Shown here: in pieces, positions 1,572 to 11,382 of the stretch | How the letters are laid out: every line of letters begins with the position of its first letter | Position numbering within the stretch: position 1 is the stretch's first letter | Assembly (NCBI GenBank): GCA_030608765.1 | Contig: JAUWDN010000011.1 | Coordinates: 1 to 12,524 of the forward strand | Source: Promethearchaeota archaeon | GTDB taxonomy: Archaea; Asgardarchaeota; Lokiarchaeia; Sigynarchaeales; SOKP01 | Length of the DNA: 12,524 bases | Direction: 5' to 3' | Notes under the pieces: model-generated | The model's database searches: none | What the model was told of the DNA's origin: nothing | The model's input: only the letters and a program-made list of their open reading frames with translations | Made by a program: the position numbers and the translations under genes

Positions 1572-2378
1572 TTATCTCTTTAAAAACCTCTTTGAAGAGG
1601 ATCTGATTCCAATAAATAAAAAGAATAGTGAGAAAATCAAAGTTAATGGTAAGGACCCTAGCACAATATATGCAAAAGCAGGTTCTGACGAATAGAAAAA
1701 TAAGGTGACAGTAAGGCCTAGATGTACAAGAGAATTCATAACGGCTAAATTTCTGTTAATGGATAAAAACCCAAAAACAAGATTTGGAAATAGAAATAAT
1801 ATTACAATATTACCCGTAGATAGAAGGATTAAAGCAGGGAAAAATCGCGAAAATAATTGATCAAAGTTGAAATATTGAGTTAGATTGAATGCGGCATAAA
1901 TAAGAAGTGTAGCATTAATACTTACGAAAATCAAGAGAATGGTAAATGGTACGTTAATTAACCACGAAACAGTTACTCTAACGATAGGAGAATGAATTAT
2001 TTTAGTTCTTAAAACATCTTGAATTACTTTTTCCATTTCTTCTTGAATAATTTTCTCTGTATCGTAATTAGGTGAATAAGAATCGATAAATTCTTGTAAG
2101 ACTTCTTTTATTATTTTAGTAACCAGTTCATTGTTATCGTTCGAGCTTACAATAGCAGCTCCGAGTAATCTTTCATCCTCGTTTGGAACGAGTATAAGTT
2201 TGTTGTTTTCACCGAGGTTAACATTTTTTACAGCCGTTCCTAAAGCTTCCCTACTAAAATTTGCAATGGAAGTGAAAAACCCTATTAACAAATTGTCATC
2301 ATACTGTTCTTCTCTCGTAAACTCTTTGGAATATAATAAAATTCCGCTTTCATCTAGTATGTATAGATTTTTTAACAT
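1572..2378 (-). CDS. Longin-like domain protein with four membrane segments
   Basis: 268 residues, ATG start preceded by AAAGGT. The N-terminal part (1-100) reads like an Asgard longin-type domain: a first strand NLYILDESGILLYSKEF (4-20), helix DDNLLIGFFTSIANFSREAL (27-46), strands around 59-78 and a C-terminal helix LVTKIIKEVLQEFIDSY (85-101). Sybindin/TRAPP, AP-sigma and SNARE longin domains start the same way. A charged linker (105-130) leads to four hydrophobic segments, about 135-163, 177-204, 208-230 and 233-257, and a basic tail (SSSKRFLKR). The longin part would face the cytosol. It is the last gene of the operon, 38 bp after the pseudo-ATPase. Longin domains usually bind small GTPases or partner longins, so a role linking the transporter to such a partner is inferred. 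Roadblock-type folds look similar and cannot be excluded by eye. Confidence 0.7.
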   Translation of the reverse strand: MLKNLYILDESGILLYSKEFTREEQYDDNLLIGFFTSIANFSREALGTAVKNVNLGENNKLILVPNEDERLLGAAIVSSNDNNELVTKIIKEVLQEFIDSYSPNYDTEKIIQEEMEKVIQDVLRTKIIHSPIVRVTVSWLINVPFTILLIFVSINATLLIYAAFNLTQYFNFDQLFSRFFPALILLSTGNIVILFLFPNLVFGFLSINRNLAVMNSLVHLGLTVTLFFYSSEPAFAYIVLGSLPLTLIFSLFFLFIGIRSSSKRFLKR

Positions 2379-2416
2379 TTTTTTTATTACCTTTTTTTAT
2401 ATCCAAACTTTAAACT

Positions 2417-4123
2417 TCATTTACTTTCGATAAATTCCATATAATCTCCAATTGAGGCAGTAGATCTTTTAAAACTATATAAACTTGGACCGAGTAATTC
2501 GGTTATTTGAATTATTACTTCTGGAATACTATCTTTGATAAAAATCTTAAATTTTTCTTTTTTTCTTTCTTCGATTATTACATCTATTTCTTTCATTTCT
2601 TTAAGTTTTTGAATCGATAAATCATCTGGATCGTTCAATTCTATGTTTAGAATTTCACCATATTGGGGTAAACTTTCAATGTAATCTTTAAAAGATCCTA
2701 TTTTAGAAGTATTTTTTGTAATAGTTAGAATTTGGTCGCAATTTGACACGATTTCTTCAGGGCCATGGAAAATTAGTACTACATGAAAGTTTTCTTTGAT
2801 TTTATTCATGTATGAGTTAAATTTCTCGTATTCTAATTTTCCTAATATTCCAAAGGGAATAGAAAACATAATAATCGTTGGCGACTGAATTAAGGCTCGT
2901 GTAATCGAAAAAAGGAGAAATTCTAAAGGCGTTAACTGGGAGAATTTCTTATTTTTCTTGTTTAACAAGCCTGTTGATTCTAAAACCTTCTTAATAAACT
3001 GCTTCTTACGGCTAAAATTATAGGATTTCTCGATTAGAAATTCTCCCATTATTTCATCCAAACTCTGAGCTAATCCCGCATCCCTTAAAATTAAATTAAA
3101 ATCACTTTTCTTTTTCCGATAAATCTCGTTTAAATTAATATTATATTGAAGTGCTTTCTTAACTCTCATCTTTGTAATTGACGAGTCGTAGGCTTGAGGT
3201 AAGATAAAGATCTTTGCTTTTTCTTCTTTAGATAGCAATATCATTGGAATTCCGAAAATTTCTATTGAGCCTGAAAAATCAGATTGGCTTCCAGCGATAG
3301 TATCAAATAAATTCAATAAATCTAATCTAGGATCGATGCTTTCCAAGTGTTTTTCATCAAAAATTATACCAATAGATTTTCCTCTATGAATTTTAAAAGA
3401 AAGGTTATTAATTATATTACCTACAGAGACGCGCTTAAGAACTAGATCTTGAGAATTCTCTTTTAACTCATCTTTATTGACGCCTGTACAAACCAATTCG
3501 CATACTTTTTCAGGTATTTCATAAACATGTGGGGGGTCTTCAACACTCCAATTCTTGATAATTTCTAGTTCATTAAATTCTCTTTCAGAAATAATTTTTG
3601 ATAGTGATTTTGAAAATGAAAAAGTTGGAAGAATGGGATATTTTTCTAAGTTGATTTTTAATTTAATAACAAAATCAGGATACGAGATTCGAATTTCTCT
3701 ATAATATGGATTATTTTTTATTTTATAATTTTCAAACTTTTCTTCAATTAGTTTAACTTCAGTGTTTAAATGTTTTAAGTGGTTCTGAAATTCAGTTCTT
3801 ATTAGTCTTCTCATTCGATGAATAATTTTAGCCGGATTAATCGTCCCATCCTCATCGAAATCAGGTTCAAATAATATCTCACTAAAATCAATTTCTTCCT
3901 CAATAGGAGTATAAATCTTTAATAACGGTACGCCTTTTTCAATAACATCGCTATTTGTAAAAAACAAAACTTCAATAAAGGATTTTTTGTAAAGTAAGTT
4001 AATGATAGAAGCGATTCCAAAAGTGTTTTCCCTATAAGTCATCCAGAAACGCTTAGAAAAACGAATTGCCTCTAGAATTTTTTGCCTTAAATGTTCTAAC
4101 TCTATTTCTCTAGAGTTCTTCAA
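2417..4123 (-). CDS. Degenerate ABC protein (pseudo-ATPase) with E2/RWD-like N-terminal domain
   Basis: 568 residues from a TTG start; GAGGTG lies 7 nt upstream and the gene overlaps the previous one by 14 nt. Residues 1-110 are unassigned. Residues about 115-215 resemble the UBC/RWD fold: a leading helix, strands REIRISYPDFVIKLKINL (142-159), a proline turn KYPILPTFSF (161-170), then a helix LEIIKNW (186-192) and the final helix EIPEKVCELV (202-211); no catalytic Cys is evident. Residues 227-485 follow the ABC fold but with broken motifs: the Walker A position reads GIIFDEKHLES (252-262), the signature is LTPLE (397-401) and Walker B is TIIMFSIPF (416-424) without Asp/Glu. The Q-loop ILPQ (Q310) and an H-loop His (H453) remain. 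The C-terminal 80 residues match the DUF4162-like tail of the other two ATPases. ATP hydrolysis is unlikely; a structural or regulatory partner is inferred. Confidence 0.75.
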   Translation of the reverse strand: MKNSREIELEHLRQKILEAIRFSKRFWMTYRENTFGIASIINLLYKKSFIEVLFFTNSDVIEKGVPLLKIYTPIEEEIDFSEILFEPDFDEDGTINPAKIIHRMRRLIRTEFQNHLKHLNTEVKLIEEKFENYKIKNNPYYREIRISYPDFVIKLKINLEKYPILPTFSFSKSLSKIISEREFNELEIIKNWSVEDPPHVYEIPEKVCELVCTGVNKDELKENSQDLVLKRVSVGNIINNLSFKIHRGKSIGIIFDEKHLESIDPRLDLLNLFDTIAGSQSDFSGSIEIFGIPMILLSKEEKAKIFILPQAYDSSITKMRVKKALQYNINLNEIYRKKKSDFNLILRDAGLAQSLDEIMGEFLIEKSYNFSRKKQFIKKVLESTGLLNKKNKKFSQLTPLEFLLFSITRALIQSPTIIMFSIPFGILGKLEYEKFNSYMNKIKENFHVVLIFHGPEEIVSNCDQILTITKNTSKIGSFKDYIESLPQYGEILNIELNDPDDLSIQKLKEMKEIDVIIEERKKEKFKIFIKDSIPEVIIQITELLGPSLYSFKRSTASIGDYMEFIESK

Positions 4124-7100
4124 TTTTTGGCACCTCTATTAATTTGTATCTGAAAAATTGTTCCATTTTTGAATCTATTTGCTTTATTTCTTTGATGGAA
4201 TCATTTCCTACTTCATTTTCAATTTTATTAATTAAATCATTTACATTTAGATTGGTGAATAATGAATAATCCGTACCTACTTTATTTTCTAATACACTCT
4301 CAATACCGTCTATTGCTTCCAACCTCTGAATTGCGTTCTCTTTGATTTCTCTAAAACATAATTCTATAGATCTCCCCTTTCCGGGTAATTGTGCTAGTAA
4401 ATCTTTAGGTTTACCGAAATCTATAATGCCTCTATTTCTACCGAAAATTGCTACGCGATTACAAAATCGGGATTCTTCTGGATAGTGAGTTATTACGATT
4501 AACGTAGTTCCAAATTGTTCATTTATCTTAGTTAGAGCTAACCATAAATTCTCTCGAATAATCGGATCTAAACCTGAAGTAGGTTCGTCTAAAATAAGAA
4601 AGATAGGAGAATGAATTAATCCAATAGCTATACTAACTCTTCTTTTTTGACCTCCTGAAAGATTTCTCACGAGTTCATTCATTTTATCCTCTATTTCGAG
4701 GTTGCGTAGGAGTCTTCTCGACCTACTTATGATCTCTCGTTCAGTTAGTCCATATTGACCTCCAAATGATAACAAATTATCTAAGACGGTAAAGTTGTGA
4801 TAAATTTTACCCAGATCTTGGGGGACATAACCATATATTGGTCTTATTTTTTTAGAATTTCTTTTATTAATGTTTAATCCAAAAATTTGACAGAACCCGG
4901 TAATTTTTCTCATTCCCAATAATCCTTTTATAAATGTGGATTTACCTGCTCCACTTTCACCTAAGATTCCTAATATTTGACCATGATCTACTTTCATAGA
5001 CACAGAATCAACAATTAACTTTCCTCCAGCGTATACACTAAAATTTTCGCAAGAAATTGCTGGAAATCTTCGTAGATAAGAGGGCGTTACAAATCCTCCT
5101 AAACCTAATTTTTGGATGATTCTTTTTATTAACGAGAGTTTTTGACGTATTTTAAGGAATATGAGTATGCTAATAATTCCCGCTTCTGTTAGTAAAATAT
5201 AAACTAATAATAAGTTCCATGGTTTTGAATCAAAACTTTGATCATATTTTAACTCGTCTATTATTATGATTCCGTACGGAGAATTTCTTAAATCCCCTCC
5301 AAATGAAGGGTTATCACCAATGCCTCCCGTACGACTGCTTATGCAATCAGCAAACCAGAACAGAGCTTCTTGAATGTTTTCCGGTTGAAAATTATAATCG
5401 TAAAGAGCCTTAGAAGCCATGTATGTAGTAAGAAAAGAAGATGGTAAATCTAAAAATTGTCCCATCATAGGTATAAGAGAAAAACTACCATCGGAAGTTT
5501 GCGATAGTTTTAGAAAATCAATTGCTGACATTTTAGACATGGGGCCGTTAATAAAACCCTCGTGAAAAATTTGTAAACCATAATATGTTGAAATAATATC
5601 ACTATGAAAACCTATAAATATAGAAAATCCTCCGTCAGCATTTTGACACGACCTTACCCAATGTGTTAGATTATCATAATGAATTCTATTTAATCCATTT
5701 ATTAACTCTAAGGAAATTAATGCCCAATAAGTGCTTTCTACAGTGGACACATTTGTGTTTATAAGATCAGTAAAAATGATAGAATAGGATCCAAATAGGG
5801 ATAATACATGATCGACATCGTTTCCTACTCTAAAACCTCCATCAGGATTCTGTAAATTTGCCAAGTAGTTTTTAGTAATATTTAATAAATATGGTGGAAA
5901 CCAAGGGCGGTATATTGGGATTATCATTTGCAACAGCTTAAGACCACAATATGTAGAAAAAAGAGTTGCGTTTTGACCGGGTTGTGAGCCAAATCCTCCC
6001 TCGTTAAGATTGTAACACATCCATGTAAAATTTAAGATGTTATTTTTTACAAATTGAAACTGTGGAGTCTCAATAGAATCTAAATAGCCCATATTATAAT
6101 ATGTTAACATCCCAAAATAATTAGACTCAAGTGTAATTTGCCCGAATAGAGCATTTCTTGCTTGGAAAAAGTGTAACCATCTATAATATCTAATTGAGAT
6201 CTGGTTTATCGCGTTTGTTTCTTCAGGAGTAAGTACTATCATGCTTTTTAAAATATCGATTGATTTCATTGCTGCCCAACCTGACTTGAAATCAGAAATT
6301 GTAACGTTAGGGCGAACTCCAAATCCACCATTATTATTTGAACAATTTAAGACGAAATTTAATGTTTTATTCTCATTAATTAAAAAATTAAGCCCTAATA
6401 GATCTAGTGTTGAAATTGAGTAATAAGTTGTTTGGACATCAGACATGCCCGTTTCAGGATTAAGATACCCTCCATCGATTAGATTATAATGTGAACTGAA
6501 ATAAGCTCCAATATCTAGGCGCTCAGCTAAACTATACGACATATTCATTCCTAAAAATGCTCTTACGCCAAAATATGTTGTTTCAGGAGTTGCTATTAAT
6601 GAATCATTTGTTATTCTATAACTACCTATCAGAGGAGTCCAAGTAGAATTAATGAATTCTCCAATTTTTTGGTTAGTAAGAATTGAACTTTCTGCTATAC
6701 TGTATGCTGAATTAATGGCACAAAATGTTGAAATTATATCAGAATCGTTTAAAAGTTGATTAAATTTAAAACCCCACCCGCCTCCATTTAGGGCGTTTAC
6801 TAAATAATCGGCAATATCTTCAGTTTCGCCAAGTTGGATTTTTTTCTCAAGATACGATGTATTCATTATTTTTAGAGTTTCAATTGCCTCATAAGTTGAA
6901 AACATGTTTCCAAATCCAGCTATATCTGAATATGAACCGTCAATATTTTGCTTTTCAAATATATAATCAAAAAAGAAATCACGAAAGAAAAATTCCAAAT
7001 TAGGGTTGTTATTAGGATTTAATAACTCTGGAGCATAAATACTTGAAAAAGAATAATTAATAGAATCAATAGCTCTATAATTTGAATCAATATCCGGTTC

Positions 7101-7301
7101 AACAAATAATCCTATGTCATTGTGATGAGTACTCGTGAATAGAGTTGCCAGATTCTTAACTTGAATTACATCTTCTTCACTTATATAGTAAGTCCAACGA
7201 ACATTTATTAAAACTAAAGATAAAATCGGAGTTCCAACTAAAATGCTGAATATAATGAGTCTTTTAATCCATTTCTTGTTTTTCCGACTTAGCTTTATTA
7301 T
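4110..7301 (-). CDS. Extracytoplasmic prenyltransferase/terpene-cyclase-like toroid fused through a TM helix to an ABC ATPase
   Basis: About 1063 residues, counting from an ATA at 7301. The first ATG/GTG/TTG in frame is a TTG at 6998, but the frame is open for 101 more codons and holds a full signal anchor: basic KLSRKNKKWIKR (3-14), then hydrophobic 15-32. Residues about 120-690 carry some ten to twelve alpha-alpha repeats with the motif (N)DGGF...S..TYY.L, at about 121, 173, 276, 323, 433, 486, 555, 603 and 660, as in protein prenyltransferase beta subunits and squalene cyclases. The last repeat GGIGDNPSFGGDLRNSPYG (659-677) is Rab-GGTase-beta-like, but the zinc His is Asn673 and no ligand Cys is evident. 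TM2 is 697-716, followed by a basic stretch. Then comes a complete ABC domain: Walker A GILGESGAGKST (778-789), Q-loop Q828, LSGGQ (881-885), LILDEP (902-907), His939, and a DUF4162-like tail. Inferred topology is N-in, toroid outside, ATPase inside. Confidence 0.85.
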   Translation of the reverse strand: MIKLSRKNKKWIKRLIIFSILVGTPILSLVLINVRWTYYISEEDVIQVKNLATLFTSTHHNDIGLFVEPDIDSNYRAIDSINYSFSSIYAPELLNPNNNPNLEFFFRDFFFDYIFEKQNIDGSYSDIAGFGNMFSTYEAIETLKIMNTSYLEKKIQLGETEDIADYLVNALNGGGWGFKFNQLLNDSDIISTFCAINSAYSIAESSILTNQKIGEFINSTWTPLIGSYRITNDSLIATPETTYFGVRAFLGMNMSYSLAERLDIGAYFSSHYNLIDGGYLNPETGMSDVQTTYYSISTLDLLGLNFLINENKTLNFVLNCSNNNGGFGVRPNVTISDFKSGWAAMKSIDILKSMIVLTPEETNAINQISIRYYRWLHFFQARNALFGQITLESNYFGMLTYYNMGYLDSIETPQFQFVKNNILNFTWMCYNLNEGGFGSQPGQNATLFSTYCGLKLLQMIIPIYRPWFPPYLLNITKNYLANLQNPDGGFRVGNDVDHVLSLFGSYSIIFTDLINTNVSTVESTYWALISLELINGLNRIHYDNLTHWVRSCQNADGGFSIFIGFHSDIISTYYGLQIFHEGFINGPMSKMSAIDFLKLSQTSDGSFSLIPMMGQFLDLPSSFLTTYMASKALYDYNFQPENIQEALFWFADCISSRTGGIGDNPSFGGDLRNSPYGIIIIDELKYDQSFDSKPWNLLLVYILLTEAGIISILIFLKIRQKLSLIKRIIQKLGLGGFVTPSYLRRFPAISCENFSVYAGGKLIVDSVSMKVDHGQILGILGESGAGKSTFIKGLLGMRKITGFCQIFGLNINKRNSKKIRPIYGYVPQDLGKIYHNFTVLDNLLSFGGQYGLTEREIISRSRRLLRNLEIEDKMNELVRNLSGGQKRRVSIAIGLIHSPIFLILDEPTSGLDPIIRENLWLALTKINEQFGTTLIVITHYPEESRFCNRVAIFGRNRGIIDFGKPKDLLAQLPGKGRSIELCFREIKENAIQRLEAIDGIESVLENKVGTDYSLFTNLNVNDLINKIENEVGNDSIKEIKQIDSKMEQFFRYKLIEVPKIEEL
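4131..4136 (-). promoter_or_regulatory. Ribosome binding site for the TTG-started pseudo-ATPase gene
   Basis: GAGGTG lies inside the end of the toroid-ATPase gene, 7 nt before the TTG at 4123. This spacing decides the TTG start and indicates coupled translation through the 14-nt overlap. Confidence 0.6.
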
Positions 7302-8332
7302 TAAGATCCACCTTCATTAATTAATTCCATATGATTCTGTTTAGTTTCTTTTTCTTCCTCTTCTTGAATTCTAATTTGAAAGTATCTTCTAAAGTTAGCT
7401 GTGTCTCTGCTCATTGAAATAACTTTAAACTTGTTTTCAAATAGAAATTTCATTAATTTAGGTAAATTATCTTCAAAGTCATCCATTAATACCTCTATAG
7501 TTTCATTCCCAACTCGTAATACTTTTTTTATTGAAGGATACTTTTGAATCGTTTTAATTATTTCTTGGTCTAAATTTTCAATTGAGACTCTTGCTACTAA
7601 GCCATTACTTGGTAAAGCGTTTATTAGATTTTGAGGAGAATCAAATTCAAGTAATCTTCCTTCTCTTAGGATTGCAGTTTTATCACATATTAATGACGCT
7701 TCTAAATCGTGAGATATGATAAACATTGTTGTGCTTAATTGCTGGTTTAACTTCTTTAGATAACTAAGTATTTGATAGCGCTTCGATGCATCTACGCCGG
7801 TTGTTGGTTCGTCGAGAAATAAAACTTTAGGGCTATGAATTAAACCAATAGCCATTGAAAGGCGTTTTTTTTCCCCTCCACTCATTTTTTTTACTCTTTT
7901 TTTCCAAGTATCTTTAGGAATATCTAATATCCCAAATAGTTTCTCTGCTGTTAATTTAGCTGTTTTTTTATTCATGCCGTAAGTTGATGTAAAGACTTCA
8001 ACGTTTACCATAGGATTTAAATCAAAATATAAATTTAATAATTCTAATTGTGGTACGTATCCAATATTGCTTAAAATTTTTGAGTAATTAGCTTTTTTAC
8101 TAGGATTTAAACCTGTAACTAGTACATTTCCATTCCAATTCTTTTTTTCAATTTGACAAGTCAAGACCCTTATAATAGTTGTTTTTCCAGCTCCAGAAAT
8201 ACCAAACATACCAATAATTTCACCCTTTTTCACGTTAAAAGACACATCATAAACTATTTGCTTTTTCCCAAATATAACATTCAGATTATCTACTGATACC
8301 ATTGCATCTTCAGAAGTTTCGGTAAGCTCCAT
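7301..8332 (-). CDS. Canonical ABC transporter ATPase with DUF4162-like tail
   Basis: 343 residues from ATG 8332. A longer in-frame ATG at 8344 exists, but it overlaps the GAGGTG that lies 4 nt before 8332, so the shorter form is preferred. All catalytic motifs are intact: Walker A GISGAGKTT (44-52), Q-loop VPQ (Q95), signature KMSGGEKKR (149-157), Walker B VLFLDEP (170-176) and H-loop ISHD (His208). Residues about 245-325 form the small C-terminal domain common in ATPases of ABC-2 exporters (DrrA/CcmA/NatA group), followed by an acidic tail. The start is 1 nt after the stop of permease 2 and the end overlaps the toroid-ATPase gene by 1 nt, so the products are surely made together. It should power the permease pair, probably as a heterodimer with the ATPase domain of the fusion protein. 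The substrate is unknown. Confidence 0.92.
   Translation of the reverse strand: MELTETSEDAMVSVDNLNVIFGKKQIVYDVSFNVKKGEIIGMFGISGAGKTTIIRVLTCQIEKKNWNGNVLVTGLNPSKKANYSKILSNIGYVPQLELLNLYFDLNPMVNVEVFTSTYGMNKKTAKLTAEKLFGILDIPKDTWKKRVKKMSGGEKKRLSMAIGLIHSPKVLFLDEPTTGVDASKRYQILSYLKKLNQQLSTTMFIISHDLEASLICDKTAILREGRLLEFDSPQNLINALPSNGLVARVSIENLDQEIIKTIQKYPSIKKVLRVGNETIEVLMDDFEDNLPKLMKFLFENKFKVISMSRDTANFRRYFQIRIQEEEEKETKQNHMELINEGGS
7308..7312 (-). promoter_or_regulatory. Ribosome binding site supporting a non-canonical ATA start
   Basis: GGTGG (followed by ATC, so close to the GGTGATC consensus) lies in the last codons of the canonical ATPase gene. Six nt later comes TAATA, where the stop TAA shares its last A with an in-frame ATA at 7301-7299. 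This is the geometry of a TAATG stop/start overlap with G replaced by A. Confidence 0.45.
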
Positions 8333-8333
8333 C

Positions 8334-9566
8334 TTACACCTCATATTTTCTTCTTTGGAATATTATAAATGACAAAACTACGAGAGTTAAACTTACGCCT
8401 AATAACGCAAAAAAGTCAAAACCGAACACTGATTTTCCTTTAGTGATTATTCCCGTAATTAAAGGGCTTCCATGAGATAACGGAAGTATGTATGCAAAAA
8501 CCTGTAAATAGATGGGCATAGCATCAATTGGAATGAATATCCCACTTAAAAGAATTAATACCAGAAATGTAGCTAAAAATAGTTGGTTTGCTTGTGTCTT
8601 AGTTTTGCTTAAAGTGCTTATAAAAATACCTATCGCAAGACCTGTGAATCCTAAAATAAAAAGTGAGAGAAAGAGATCAAAAAATGAACCTACTAAATAC
8701 AATCCAAAACTTAACGCACTAATAATAAGTGAGAAACTTTGAATTACCAAAATACTCATATAAGTAAGGTATTTAGCTGTTAGAATCTCAACTCTCTTGA
8801 CGGGTGTAAGTAGTAATCTAGCAACTGGTTTTTCTTGGACAATTGTCAAAATTGTTGAAACCATACCCACCCCAATAATCATGAAAGAGAGAACTAATAC
8901 CATCATGTAATTATAGTTGAAACTATAACCCTCAGGAATTGAAAACTCTTCAAAACCATTTATTTCAAACTGAGGAGTTAAATTGTTTTGAGAGACGAAA
9001 ATTTTAATCGAGTCATAAACCGCATTTAAACTTGCTTGAATTTTTTTTATATCTGACGAATCTGTTATACAATCTATTAATCCGGGATACCCCCAGGTGA
9101 TCAACTCCGAGAAATCAACAGGGATTGAAATAATAATTTTAATTTTTTTAGCAGTCAAATAATTTCTTGCTGTCTCCATCGCGTAAATTTCTTCCGTAGC
9201 ATTAAAAAATTGGACGAGGTTTAATAAATTCGAACTATTTACAGCTTCTACATATTTGAGGTTATAATCATCCAGTTCTGATTCGGTAAAATTATTTTCT
9301 TCTATAAATGTATTAGAGTCGTAGGATACCACTACACAATTAATAGGCTGCATAGTAGCACCTGAATTACTAGAAGTTAAGCCTATTGCAACAACCACAA
9401 GAGGAGGCACAATCAAAGCTATAAAAATATTGAACTTATCTGTCCATAGTAGACGAAACTCTTTTTTAATTTGTTTAAGTAATCTGAGAAGCCCTTTTTT
9501 AAAATTTAAATTCTTTAATTTGCTTGACTCTAAATTATTTTTGTTATGGTTTTCTCTGCTTCTGAT
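8334..9566 (-). CDS. ABC-2 type permease 2 (true start upstream of TTG, probably ATC)
   Basis: About 410 residues. The first standard start codon in frame, TTG 9416, falls in the middle of the first membrane helix. The frame upstream encodes a basic cytosolic tail and QIKKEFRLLWTDKFNIFIAL (32-51), which aligns with LIQKEFNRIKSDRRTLLLLF of permease 1. The best start is ATC 9566, 7 nt after GGAGGTG; no ATG, GTG or TTG exists between the upstream in-frame stop (9617) and 9416. The topology follows the ABC-2 (PF12698-like) plan: TM1 about 46-63, an external domain 64-215, then five more segments near 218-241, 266-291, 295-317, 328-346 and 383-402. The cytosolic loop RLLLTPVKRVEILTAKYL (250-267) is the likely coupling helix, and SGIFIPIDAMP (341-351) is typical of the family. 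Four N-glycosylation sequons lie in the external domain and none elsewhere after TM1. It begins 4 nt after permease 1. Confidence 0.88.
   Translation of the reverse strand: MRSRENHNKNNLESSKLKNLNFKKGLLRLLKQIKKEFRLLWTDKFNIFIALIVPPLVVVAIGLTSSNSGATMQPINCVVVSYDSNTFIEENNFTESELDDYNLKYVEAVNSSNLLNLVQFFNATEEIYAMETARNYLTAKKIKIIISIPVDFSELITWGYPGLIDCITDSSDIKKIQASLNAVYDSIKIFVSQNNLTPQFEINGFEEFSIPEGYSFNYNYMMVLVLSFMIIGVGMVSTILTIVQEKPVARLLLTPVKRVEILTAKYLTYMSILVIQSFSLIISALSFGLYLVGSFFDLFLSLFILGFTGLAIGIFISTLSKTKTQANQLFLATFLVLILLSGIFIPIDAMPIYLQVFAYILPLSHGSPLITGIITKGKSVFGFDFFALLGVSLTLVVLSFIIFQRRKYEV
8337..8342 (-). promoter_or_regulatory. Ribosome binding site of the ATPase gene inside the permease 2 stop region
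   Basis: GAGGTG followed by TAA encodes the Glu-Val-stop end of permease 2 and at the same time is the ribosome binding site for ATG 8332, spacer TAAG. Confidence 0.6.
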
Positions 9567-9570
9567 TCTA

Positions 9571-10722
9571 TTACACCTCCAGTTTTTTAAATTTATAAGA
9601 AATGTACGCAGCAGTTAAGAAAACTAACGAAATTAATAGCAGAGAAAGCATATGTTCTATATTTAAATTTAATCCTCTTAACGTAATATCTGTGATTAAA
9701 ACAGAAGCATGGCTTAAAGGAAGAAAGTCTGCAAGGAACCGTGCCCCTCCTAATGATTCAGCTGGTAAAAGCGTACCTGAAAAAATAATCATAACAATAA
9801 ACAACATCAAATACATTTGATTAGCTCCTTGTTCAGTCGGACTAATAGCTGAGATAAATAGACCAATTGCTACTCCACTGAGGCCAATCATGACCAAAAC
9901 TAGATAGAAAGCAAATAGAGATCCTAAACTATATAGCCCGAAAAAAGAAGTCATTACAAATATTTCTGTGGCCTGCACTAGCATTATTACTGTATTTGCA
10001 ATTAATTTACTAATGAGAATATCTCTCTTTGATGTAGGTGTTATAAGCATTCTTGGAAGTGGACCTTCGGATACAATTGACAATGATGTTAGGTTCATTG
10101 TAGTGCCTATTATTATTATCGGTAAAATTAAAGAAAGAGAATAATTGAGTAGTTGAGATTCCCACGAAGGAACTCCGAATTCAAGGTGAGGGACCATTAT
10201 GGTAAAATTTTCTAACATATTAATTTCTACCCGAAAAAGAGCTATTGGTTCTTGGAGCGCAACCTCGATCGCACCGACAGCACTTAAATCAGATCCATCA
10301 ATATAGTATATTAAAACAGGGTTAGAATTATTTACTATTGACTCAGAAAAATTCTGAGGAAGCACAATAAAAACATCTATTATATCGTTTTTTAATAAGG
10401 AAAAACATTGATTGACTGCTTGGTTATACTCCCCGCTATTAGTGCTATTGAAATAGCGATAAAGATCCCATGCTGTTGTATTGTGTTCCATTATTGAGAT
10501 GAAAATGTCATCATACTCTGATGAGTTTGACGCAAAATTATCATAAGTAGGCATTTCATCGCGGCTAATTATTACAGCAGTAAAAAATTTAGTAGGACCA
10601 ACACCTGTAGTAAGCCCAAAAATAACGATTAGTATCATAGGAATAGTAAATAGAAGAAGTAAAGTTCTTCTATCAGATTTAATTCGATTAAATTCTTTTT
10701 GGATTAATCCAGCTATAGTCAT
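9571..10722 (-). CDS. ABC-2 type permease 1
   Basis: 383 residues from ATG 10722. The N-terminus LIQKEFNRIKSDRRTLLLLF (6-25) is the usual ABC-2 opening, an amphipathic helix before TM1 (20-40). A large external domain (41-193) follows, then TM2 194-214, TM3 240-262, TM4 268-292, TM5 299-318 and TM6 354-376. RMLITPTSKRDILISKLI (224-241) is the probable coupling helix contacting an ATPase, and SGTLLPAESL (315-324) matches the family turn seen in permease 2. Seven N-x-S/T sequons lie in the external domain against one in the rest. It is clearly a paralogue of permease 2 with a diverged external domain, so the pair would form a heterodimeric membrane core. As first gene of the operon it has its own TATA box about 60 bp upstream. 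Its C-terminal Leu-Glu-Val-stop is written by the ribosome binding site of the next gene. Confidence 0.92.
   Translation of the reverse strand: MTIAGLIQKEFNRIKSDRRTLLLLFTIPMILIVIFGLTTGVGPTKFFTAVIISRDEMPTYDNFASNSSEYDDIFISIMEHNTTAWDLYRYFNSTNSGEYNQAVNQCFSLLKNDIIDVFIVLPQNFSESIVNNSNPVLIYYIDGSDLSAVGAIEVALQEPIALFRVEINMLENFTIMVPHLEFGVPSWESQLLNYSLSLILPIIIIGTTMNLTSLSIVSEGPLPRMLITPTSKRDILISKLIANTVIMLVQATEIFVMTSFFGLYSLGSLFAFYLVLVMIGLSGVAIGLFISAISPTEQGANQMYLMLFIVMIIFSGTLLPAESLGGARFLADFLPLSHASVLITDITLRGLNLNIEHMLSLLLISLVFLTAAYISYKFKKLEV
9574..9580 (-). promoter_or_regulatory. Strong ribosome binding site supporting a non-canonical ATC start
   Basis: GGAGGTG, nearly the full anti-16S complement, overlaps the last codons of permease 1 and is followed 7 nt later by in-frame ATC 9566-9564. 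A site this good with no standard start codon behind it, in a frame that clearly encodes the permease N-terminus, argues for initiation at ATC or for a sequence error here. Confidence 0.5.
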
Positions 10723-10830: not shown

Positions 10831-11382
10831 TTAATTTTTAGGACTATTTTCGAAAAATTTACTGTTTGATAATGAAGTCGTGTTTCTTATTTTCAAAAGC
10901 GCTCTCCTTTTTTTATCGTTAATAATAAATTTTCGAAAAATTTCATTTTTATCGTTAATAAATTCCCAAAATTCTTCGTAAATCTCTTGTAAAGTCATAT
11001 TATTTTTTTTGTTAAAATTTTCTTCGAATTGACTTGTTTGTTTTTTATAGATCGTTTTTTCTGATATATCTTCTTCTGGTTTAATTGAATTGTAAAGGTC
11101 TAAGCTATTGACAAAGTGATCCTTATAGCTCGGCTTAAGGTTTTTATCCTTTTTGGTTTTTTCTGGATTTAATTGAAAATCTACTTTCTGATACCCACGA
11201 ATTGAAAAATTTTTGTCCAGAAATAATTGAAAGTGGTGTTGACATACTTTATCTTTAGGAACCGAGATAGTAGTTAATTGAGACGCTTGATTGATTATAG
11301 ATTTGGGAATCTGAATAATTTTTTTAGACTTACACACAGGACATATGACTTCAATATACCTATTGATTGCTATTGTTTCCAT
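10831..11382 (-). CDS. Small zinc-binding protein with Asgard-type CxxC...CxH domain
   Basis: 183 residues. The first 68 form a compact domain: YIEVICPVCKSKK (9-21) with Cys14 and Cys17, a middle part with QLTTISVPKDK (35-45), Cys47 with His49/His50, then LDKNFSIRGYQKVDF (55-69). Cys14, Cys17, Cys47 and a histidine are likely zinc ligands. I recall this C-x2-C / LTTIS / C-x-HxF / DKNF-RGYQ pattern from many Asgard archaeal proteins, but I know no assigned function. Residues 70-125 are charged and probably disordered; MTLQEIYEEFWEFINDKNEI (129-148) begins a predicted helix, and the tail is basic. There is no membrane segment. It lies 108 bp before the ABC operon on the same strand, probably with its own promoter, and diverges from the acyl-CoA synthetase gene. 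A regulatory or scaffold role is possible but unproven. Confidence 0.7.
   Translation of the reverse strand: METIAINRYIEVICPVCKSKKIIQIPKSIINQASQLTTISVPKDKVCQHHFQLFLDKNFSIRGYQKVDFQLNPEKTKKDKNLKPSYKDHFVNSLDLYNSIKPEEDISEKTIYKKQTSQFEENFNKKNNMTLQEIYEEFWEFINDKNEIFRKFIINDKKRRALLKIRNTTSLSNSKFFENSPKN

What the first reader, a model, noticed from the sequence alone, without database searches (positions are those of the whole stretch)
1572..10722. Candidate undescribed Asgard transporter system: two permeases, two active ATPases, a pseudo-ATPase and a longin-like membrane protein
Six genes sit within 9.2 kb, with overlaps or gaps of 1-38 bp, so they very likely act together. Known ABC-2 exporters need one or two permeases and one or two ATPases. 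Here there are in addition an external alpha/alpha toroid carried by one ATPase, a degenerate ATPase with an E2/RWD-like domain, and a longin-like domain on a four-TM anchor. I know no described transporter with this set. The longin and RWD folds are typical of eukaryotic trafficking and ubiquitin systems, so in an Asgard archaeon this could be a membrane machine linked to GTPase or ESCRT-like biology. That last step is inference.
Basis: partly seen in the sequence, partly recalled or inferred. Interest (0 to 1): 0.88.

Follow-up and report, generated by a model that had tools for sequence, protein, structure and literature searches.

The report
Asgard transporter operon with trafficking domains
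A six-gene set in Asgard archaea joins an ATP-driven membrane export pump to two protein folds (longin and an ubiquitin-enzyme-like RWD domain) best known from eukaryotic membrane traffic and ubiquitin systems; the set has stayed together over long evolutionary time, but its cargo and regulators are not yet known.

The parts
9571..10722 (-). Gene 1: ABC-2 permease (383 aa), large loop after the first membrane helix
   Evidence: Pfam PF12698 8.1e-24; closest solved chain 9ju6/8yzp, titled ABC transporter G family member 23-like, 1e-13
8334..9566 (-). Gene 2: ABC-2 permease (about 410 aa); probable ATC start at 9566
   Evidence: Pfam PF12698 2e-25 (translated from 9569, one codon upstream); same closest solved chain, 9.1e-8; start inferred
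9574..9580 (-). GGAGGTG, Shine-Dalgarno-like stretch before the inferred start of gene 2
   Evidence: read; inference
7301..8344 (-). Gene 3: active ABC ATPase (347 aa) with Walker A, signature and Walker B
   Evidence: Pfam PF00005 6.6e-24; motifs found in 39 of 41 loci, the other two being pieces cut by contig ends
4110..7298 (-). Gene 4: membrane helix, toroid, membrane helix, active ABC ATPase (about 1062 aa); probable ATA start at 7298
   Evidence: Pfam PF00432 2.5e-28 and PF00005 1.8e-25; hydropathy peaks at residues 15-33 and 696-714; Walker A and signature in 46 of 46 loci
5229..7121 (-). Toroid region of gene 4 (about residues 60-690), predicted outside the cell
   Evidence: profile matches RabGGTase beta 6.7e-25 and FTase beta 6.9e-18; no DxC, DxDD or thioester motif in the window copy; 14 NxS/T sequons in residues 81-543, 4 more in the ATPase part
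2417..4123 (-). Gene 5: degenerate ABC ATPase with RWD/E2-like N-terminal domain (568 aa)
   Evidence: no Walker A, signature or Walker B by pattern in 46 loci, two of them truncated and two duplicates; fold of residues 222-567
3458..3826 (-). RWD/E2-like domain of gene 5 (residues 100-222)
   Evidence: hhalign to Asgard UBC/RWD proteins: repeat 1 94.2%, repeat 2 98.7%, repeat 3 96.7%, repeat 4 2%; three of four of those proteins pass Pfam UQ_con
1572..2378 (-). Gene 6: longin domain on a membrane anchor, four helices in the model (268 aa)
2001..2378 (-). Longin domain of gene 6 (residues 1-126)
   Evidence: order of strands and helices; helix 1 (27-45) is the best conserved element of those compared

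Best explanation
The six genes encode one membrane complex. Shown: two different ABC-2 permeases and two different ATPases with intact motifs, the parts of an asymmetric exporter. Inferred: these four form the pump. Gene 4 carries its own extracellular toroid of the RabGGTase-beta/squalene-cyclase fold, without the catalytic motifs of those enzymes, which most likely binds or receives the exported substance; because that fold holds isoprenoid chains in its relatives and archaeal lipids are isoprenoid (both recalled), the likeliest cargo is an isoprenoid lipid or lipid-linked compound. Gene 5 (degenerate ATPase plus an E2/RWD-like domain without a catalytic cysteine) and gene 6 (membrane-bound longin) form a cytosolic regulatory or docking module that decides where or when the pump works, probably by binding a partner such as a small GTPase or an ubiquitin-system protein.
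For: Gene order kept in 30 of 44 loci with tight spacing (median gaps -10.5 to 35 bp over 26 loci). Pairwise distances of all six proteins correlate (Spearman 0.83-0.93, 325 pairs; not corrected for shared ancestry). Active motifs kept in genes 3 and 4 and absent in gene 5. Closest solved chain of both ATPases is ABCA3, a phospholipid transporter, with ABCA1 and ABCA4 also near the top; both permeases match the same solved eukaryotic ABC transporter. Toroid fold and missing catalytic motifs. The N-terminal parts of gene 5 are better conserved than its ATPase part (0.61 and 0.51 against 0.47, 13 sequences; its C-terminal tail 0.53). Longin helix 1 is conserved at 0.87 against 0.60 for the membrane part (19 sequences).
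Against: Cargo rests on fold analogy only. The best family model for both ATPases is DrrA, a drug exporter model, below its cut-off. Solved structures are a small, biased sample, so the ABCA match may say little. A GTPase-like gene was seen in only 1 of 30 loci. No physical association could be tested. In L010 and L012 no permease gene lies upstream of gene 3, in L066 the set is rearranged, and in L067 no gene 6 was found in 5.8 kb downstream of gene 5.
Confidence: 0.45

Rival explanations
1. An ordinary ABC-2 drug or peptide exporter (DrrAB-like) with lineage-specific accessory subunits; the longin and RWD folds serve only as structural adaptors.
For: Both ATPases score best against the DrrA model (188.1 and 159.9 bits); PMC7997004 names drug and antimicrobial peptide export as the most commonly recognised functions of Asgard ABC efflux systems (section 12 read).
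Against: Scores are far below the DrrA cut-off of 312.45 bits; the accessory set of toroid, degenerate ATPase and longin is kept over great divergence, which a generic drug pump would not need (inference).
Confidence: 0.25
2. Not a transporter but a transmembrane signalling machine: the toroid senses something outside and ATP hydrolysis passes the signal to the longin and RWD domains inside (like mechanotransmission ABC proteins such as FtsEX, recalled).
For: The toroid is joined through a membrane helix directly to an active ATPase; the inside parts are typical docking folds.
Against: Two ABC-2 permeases are present in all 30 complete loci; FtsEX-like systems use a different permease type (recalled).
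Confidence: 0.2
3. Two separate complexes made from one operon: a pump (genes 1-4) and an independent longin/degenerate-ATPase membrane adaptor (genes 5-6).
For: Longin relatives with membrane helices exist elsewhere, without matches to the other five genes in the 8-9 kb (6 kb for L127) fetched around them (L121, L122, L123, L127, L128); gene 5 is on the other strand from genes 1-4 in L066; L067 has genes 4 and 5 without a gene 6.
Against: Where the contig reached, gene 5 always had gene 4 beside it in the 44 loci; gene 5 is itself an ABC-fold protein, whose natural partner is a permease or another ATPase.
Confidence: 0.1

Closest known systems
ABCA lipid transporters of eukaryotes (ABCA1, ABCA3, ABCA4) and the solved 'ABC transporter G family member 23-like' protein (8yzp, ABCH class as recalled)
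   Same: Nearest solved relatives of the two active ATPases and of both permeases; ABCA chains are also among the top Foldseek hits of gene 5; large extracellular domains (recalled)
   Different: Those are fused chains (recalled); here six separate genes, an extracellular toroid on an ATPase chain, a degenerate third ATPase and a longin protein
DrrAB-type and RbbA-type prokaryotic ABC-2 exporters
   Same: ABC-2 permease class and DrrA-like ATPases with a C-terminal tail
   Different: Scores below the family cut-offs; no toroid, degenerate ATPase or longin in those systems (recalled)
NosDFY
   Same: ABC-2 exporter with a large external partner protein (recalled; NosDFY is a Foldseek hit of gene 5)
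   Different: NosD is a separate beta-helix protein; no degenerate ATPase, RWD or longin (recalled)
Longin proteins of TRAPP, adaptins and SNAREs
   Different: Here joined to membrane helices and encoded beside an ABC exporter
Protein prenyltransferase beta subunits (RabGGTase, FTase)
   Same: Toroid repeats
   Different: About twice the length, predicted outside the cell, no DxC zinc ligands or other catalytic motif in the window copy

Membership tests
ABC-2 type exporter | ABC-2 permeases above Pfam cut-off | tested here: met
   PF12698 84.8 (gene 1) and 90.1 bits (gene 2) against 31.6
ABC-2 type exporter | ATPases with intact Walker A, signature and Walker B | tested here: met
   genes 3 and 4
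DrrA subfamily (TIGR01188) | score at or above curated cut-off | tested here: not met
   188.1 and 159.9 against 312.45 bits
RbbA (NF033858) | score at or above curated cut-off | tested here: not met
   at most 144 against 1050 bits
ABCA lipid transporters | permease and ATPase fused in one chain (recalled) | tested here: not met
   separate genes
ABCA lipid transporters | lipid transport | not testable with these tools
   no assay possible
Longin domain | longin fold | tested here: met
Longin domain as GTPase partner | binds or regulates a small GTPase | not testable with these tools
   1 of 30 loci has a GTPase-like gene by motif scan
RWD/E2-like fold | homology to UBC/RWD repeats | tested here: met
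   94-98.7% to three of four repeats, 2% to the fourth; three of four of those proteins pass UQ_con; direct Pfam RWD only sub-threshold in one relative, 16.9 against 22.8 bits; the N-terminal model is of low confidence and its fold was not searched alone
Active E2 enzyme | conserved catalytic cysteine | tested here: not met
   among columns present in the window copy, residues 1-222, only position 208 has Cys in 3 or more of 45 rows (22 of 45)
Protein prenyltransferase beta subunit | toroid fold | tested here: met
   PF00432 2.5e-28; RabGGTase beta 6.7e-25
Protein prenyltransferase beta subunit | zinc ligand pair D-x-C (recalled) | tested here: not met
   absent in 14 of 15 rows; one row (L068) has an isolated DDC at 258

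The most novel reading that the evidence does not exclude
An ATP-driven lipid exporter under direct control of trafficking-type modules: a membrane-bound longin and a dead E2/RWD domain on a degenerate ATPase recruit a GTPase or ubiquitin-system partner, so that membrane lipid movement is tied to a eukaryote-like signalling layer in Asgard archaea, before eukaryotic endomembranes existed.
Probability: 0.25. Interest if true: 0.92.

Novelty: new variant of a known kind. Interest (0 to 1): 0.74.

Why it matters
Asgard genomes hold many eukaryote-like trafficking folds whose jobs are unknown, and in the Asgard strain MK-D1 small GTPase genes are reported not to lie generally in operons with longin genes (PMC10933270, passages seen). 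Here a longin and an E2/RWD-like domain are locked genetically to a defined membrane machine, which gives a concrete, testable complex for what such folds did before eukaryotes. If lipid export is confirmed, it would link membrane lipid handling to trafficking modules in the closest archaeal relatives of eukaryotes.

Tried and rejected
Own-genome search: no genome is held for the window. Sequence-only search of solved structures with the longin profile gave two weak, unrelated hits (0.45 and 0.62); the fold comparison did better. Pfam on the degenerate ATPase family: ABC_tran in 2 of 17 members, best 0.0051. Whether the neighbouring gene 10831-11382 (Pfam CpXC only at 0.034) is a seventh member: it lies near the set, upstream or downstream, in many loci, but 7 of 8 genomes searched have 3-13 matches to it, so membership is left open. 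Whether residues 1-112 of gene 5 are a second RWD copy: 13% at best, not claimed. L069 and L070 hold no gene-5 match by blast or profile and are treated as other systems, although one search had a gene-5-profile hit there (5.9e-18 and 4.0e-17) over the ATPase part. Rfam at gathering cut-offs and the tRNA scan of the window were empty.

Genome counts at limits stricter than the tool's tally (45, 47, 43, 44, 48) are hand counts from the listings. The protein searches list only the best 120 of 159, 132 and 171 hits, most without an organism name; one named hit is only 'marine sediment metagenome'. That search finds only relatives that share short exact words. The order count used 48 loci; the 30 short pieces L030-L059 were left out of it.
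Full report
WHAT IS THERE. Six collinear genes lie on the minus strand from 10722 to 1572. In transcription order: permease 1 (9571-10722), permease 2 (8334 to about 9566), ATPase (7301-8344), toroid-ATPase (4110 to about 7298), degenerate ATPase (2417-4123), longin membrane protein (1572-2378). Both permeases are ABC-2 type (PF12698, 8.1e-24 and 2e-25); both ATPases match PF00005 (6.6e-24, 1.8e-25); the toroid matches PF00432 at 2.5e-28. Flanking genes are an FAD-binding protein (3-1331, minus), a small protein with a CxxC pair (10831-11382, minus) and a CoA-ligase-like gene (11551 onward, plus).

RWD/E2-LIKE DOMAIN. The profile of gene 5 also hit, in other genomes, proteins (1.0e-7 region: 3.5e-8 to 4.0e-7) with several UBC/RWD repeats and a cysteine-rich, RING-like C-terminus (RING by eye, Pfam's only RING hit is 0.57). 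Three of four pass Pfam UQ_con (31.7-36.3 bits against 27; the fourth, a fragment, 18.3), and one passes RWD. Profile comparison of residues 100-222 gave 94.2%, 98.7% and 96.7% to repeats 1, 2 and 3 but 2% to repeat 4; controls against the ATPase part, C-terminal part, RING part and longin domain were all below 1%; the 56% to residues 1-112 is only the 13 shared overlap columns. In an ordinary search the UBC/RWD protein hit the gene-5 copy of G083 (L066) at 1.1e-12. No catalytic cysteine is conserved, so it is not an active E2.

TOROID. Its profile finds RabGGTase beta (6.7e-25), FTase beta (6.9e-18) and squalene-cyclase-like chains. The pair D-x-C is missing in 14 of 15 rows, thioester motifs in 15 of 15, and DxDD in the window copy, the only one checked for it. 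Two cysteines (428, 652) are invariant in 15 of 15 rows. Hydropathy peaks at 15-33 and 696-714, a basic N-terminus and 14 sequons between residues 81 and 543 (4 more lie in the ATPase part, so this is weak evidence) place it outside the cell (inference).

CONSERVATION. A scan of named species genomes found 29 loci, all titled Lokiarchaeota or Lokiarchaeia. Of the other 14, 11 are cut by a contig end on at least one side (one of these, L067, has 5.8 kb downstream of gene 5 without a gene 6); L010 and L012 show no permease gene upstream of gene 3 despite 3.8 and 4.4 kb of sequence; L066 is rearranged, its contig ending just past gene 5. Among the 30, gene 3 is split into two frames in L006, L024, L061 and L075; L006 and L024 also carry 1.4-2 kb of extra sequence at its start, and L074 and L075 carry two opposite-strand genes between genes 4 and 5. 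Over 26 complete loci the lowest identities to the window are 41, 36, 49, 34, 22 and 26% for genes 1 to 6, and distances of the six proteins correlate at 0.83-0.93.

DISTRIBUTION. In 227 genomes of the phylum, the gene-5 profile matches 56 at 1e-5, 45 of them at 1e-20 or better; the toroid profile matches 60 at 1e-20, 47 of them at 1e-100 or better; the longin profile matches 134 at 1e-5, many of them other longin proteins, 43 of them at 1e-25 or better. 44 genomes have both toroid and gene 5 at the strict limits. Four differ: G047 (contig starts inside gene 4), G084 (gene 5 runs into the contig end), G101 (contig ends inside the toroid) and G158 (gene 5 found by direct comparison, 22% identity). 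So 48 genomes hold all or part of the set; the other 179 showed none of it at these limits.

WHAT IT RESEMBLES. The nearest solved chain of both ATPases is ABCA3, and both permeases match one other eukaryotic ABC transporter. The best curated family is DrrA, well below cut-off. The paper searches listed no paper that describes this set; they cover openly licensed PubMed Central papers only, and most hits were seen as listings. Seen further: PMC7997004 (passages and section 12), PMC10936438 and PMC10933270 (passages), PMC6601246 (passages).

HOW IT PROBABLY WORKS. Shown: composition, motif state, folds, and long-term linkage. Inferred: genes 1-4 form an asymmetric exporter; the toroid receives a hydrophobic, probably isoprenoid, cargo; genes 5 and 6 regulate or place the pump. 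The best conserved part of the longin protein is helix 1 (0.87 against 0.60 in the membrane part), and the N-terminal parts of gene 5 are better conserved (0.61, 0.52, 0.51) than its ATPase part (0.47), its tail being 0.53, which fits binding surfaces. Against a fixed GTPase partner: only 1 of 30 loci shows a GTPase-like gene. Against the lipid cargo: no direct evidence.

VERDICT. A real, widely conserved and apparently undescribed Asgard gene set: an ABC-2 exporter variant with an unusual accessory set. Its link to eukaryote-like regulation is attractive but unproven.

Noticed in passing
L006, L010, L012, L024, L061, L075: gene 3, just after the Walker B DEPTT codons: In 6 of 35 gene-3 copies a short stop-containing insert interrupts the gene at the same codon right after DEPTT; most can fold into a hairpin, and L010 and L012 show bulges around it. 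A small archaeal bulge-helix-bulge type intron is a guess; programmed frameshifting is another. The window copy is uninterrupted. One paper search was made, seen as a listing only.
   Followed up: partly
7298 and 9566 (minus strand): Gene 2 and gene 4 lack any ATG, GTG or TTG before their first membrane helix in the window and in 6 of 30 and 14 of 30 complete loci, against 0 of 30 for genes 1, 3, 5 and 6; in the window and the six relatives looked at, ATC, ATT or ATA codons stand near the expected start, 7 bases after a GGAGGTG for gene 2 of the window. Non-AUG initiation is likely.
   Followed up: partly
L081:3485-5257 (minus), L082, L079, L080: An Asgard protein family with four UBC/RWD-like repeats and a cysteine-rich RING-like C-terminus, in 40 of 227 genomes at 1e-10; it looks like a ubiquitin-ligase-like protein.
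   Followed up: partly
L121:3082-4951, L123:4181-6027, L122, L127, L128: Other longin proteins with three to five predicted membrane helices, in tandem pairs (L121, L123) or singly, without matches to the other genes of the set nearby.
   Followed up: partly
window 10831-11382 (minus): Small CxxC-containing gene often next to the set, upstream in some loci and downstream in others; 7 of 8 genomes searched have 3-13 matches to it.
   Followed up: partly
L006:3809-5746, L024:4341-5791, L074:10934-12956, L075:7733-9377: Extra genes inserted into the set: at the start of gene 3 in L006 and L024, and two opposite-strand genes between genes 4 and 5 in L074 and L075.
   Followed up: no
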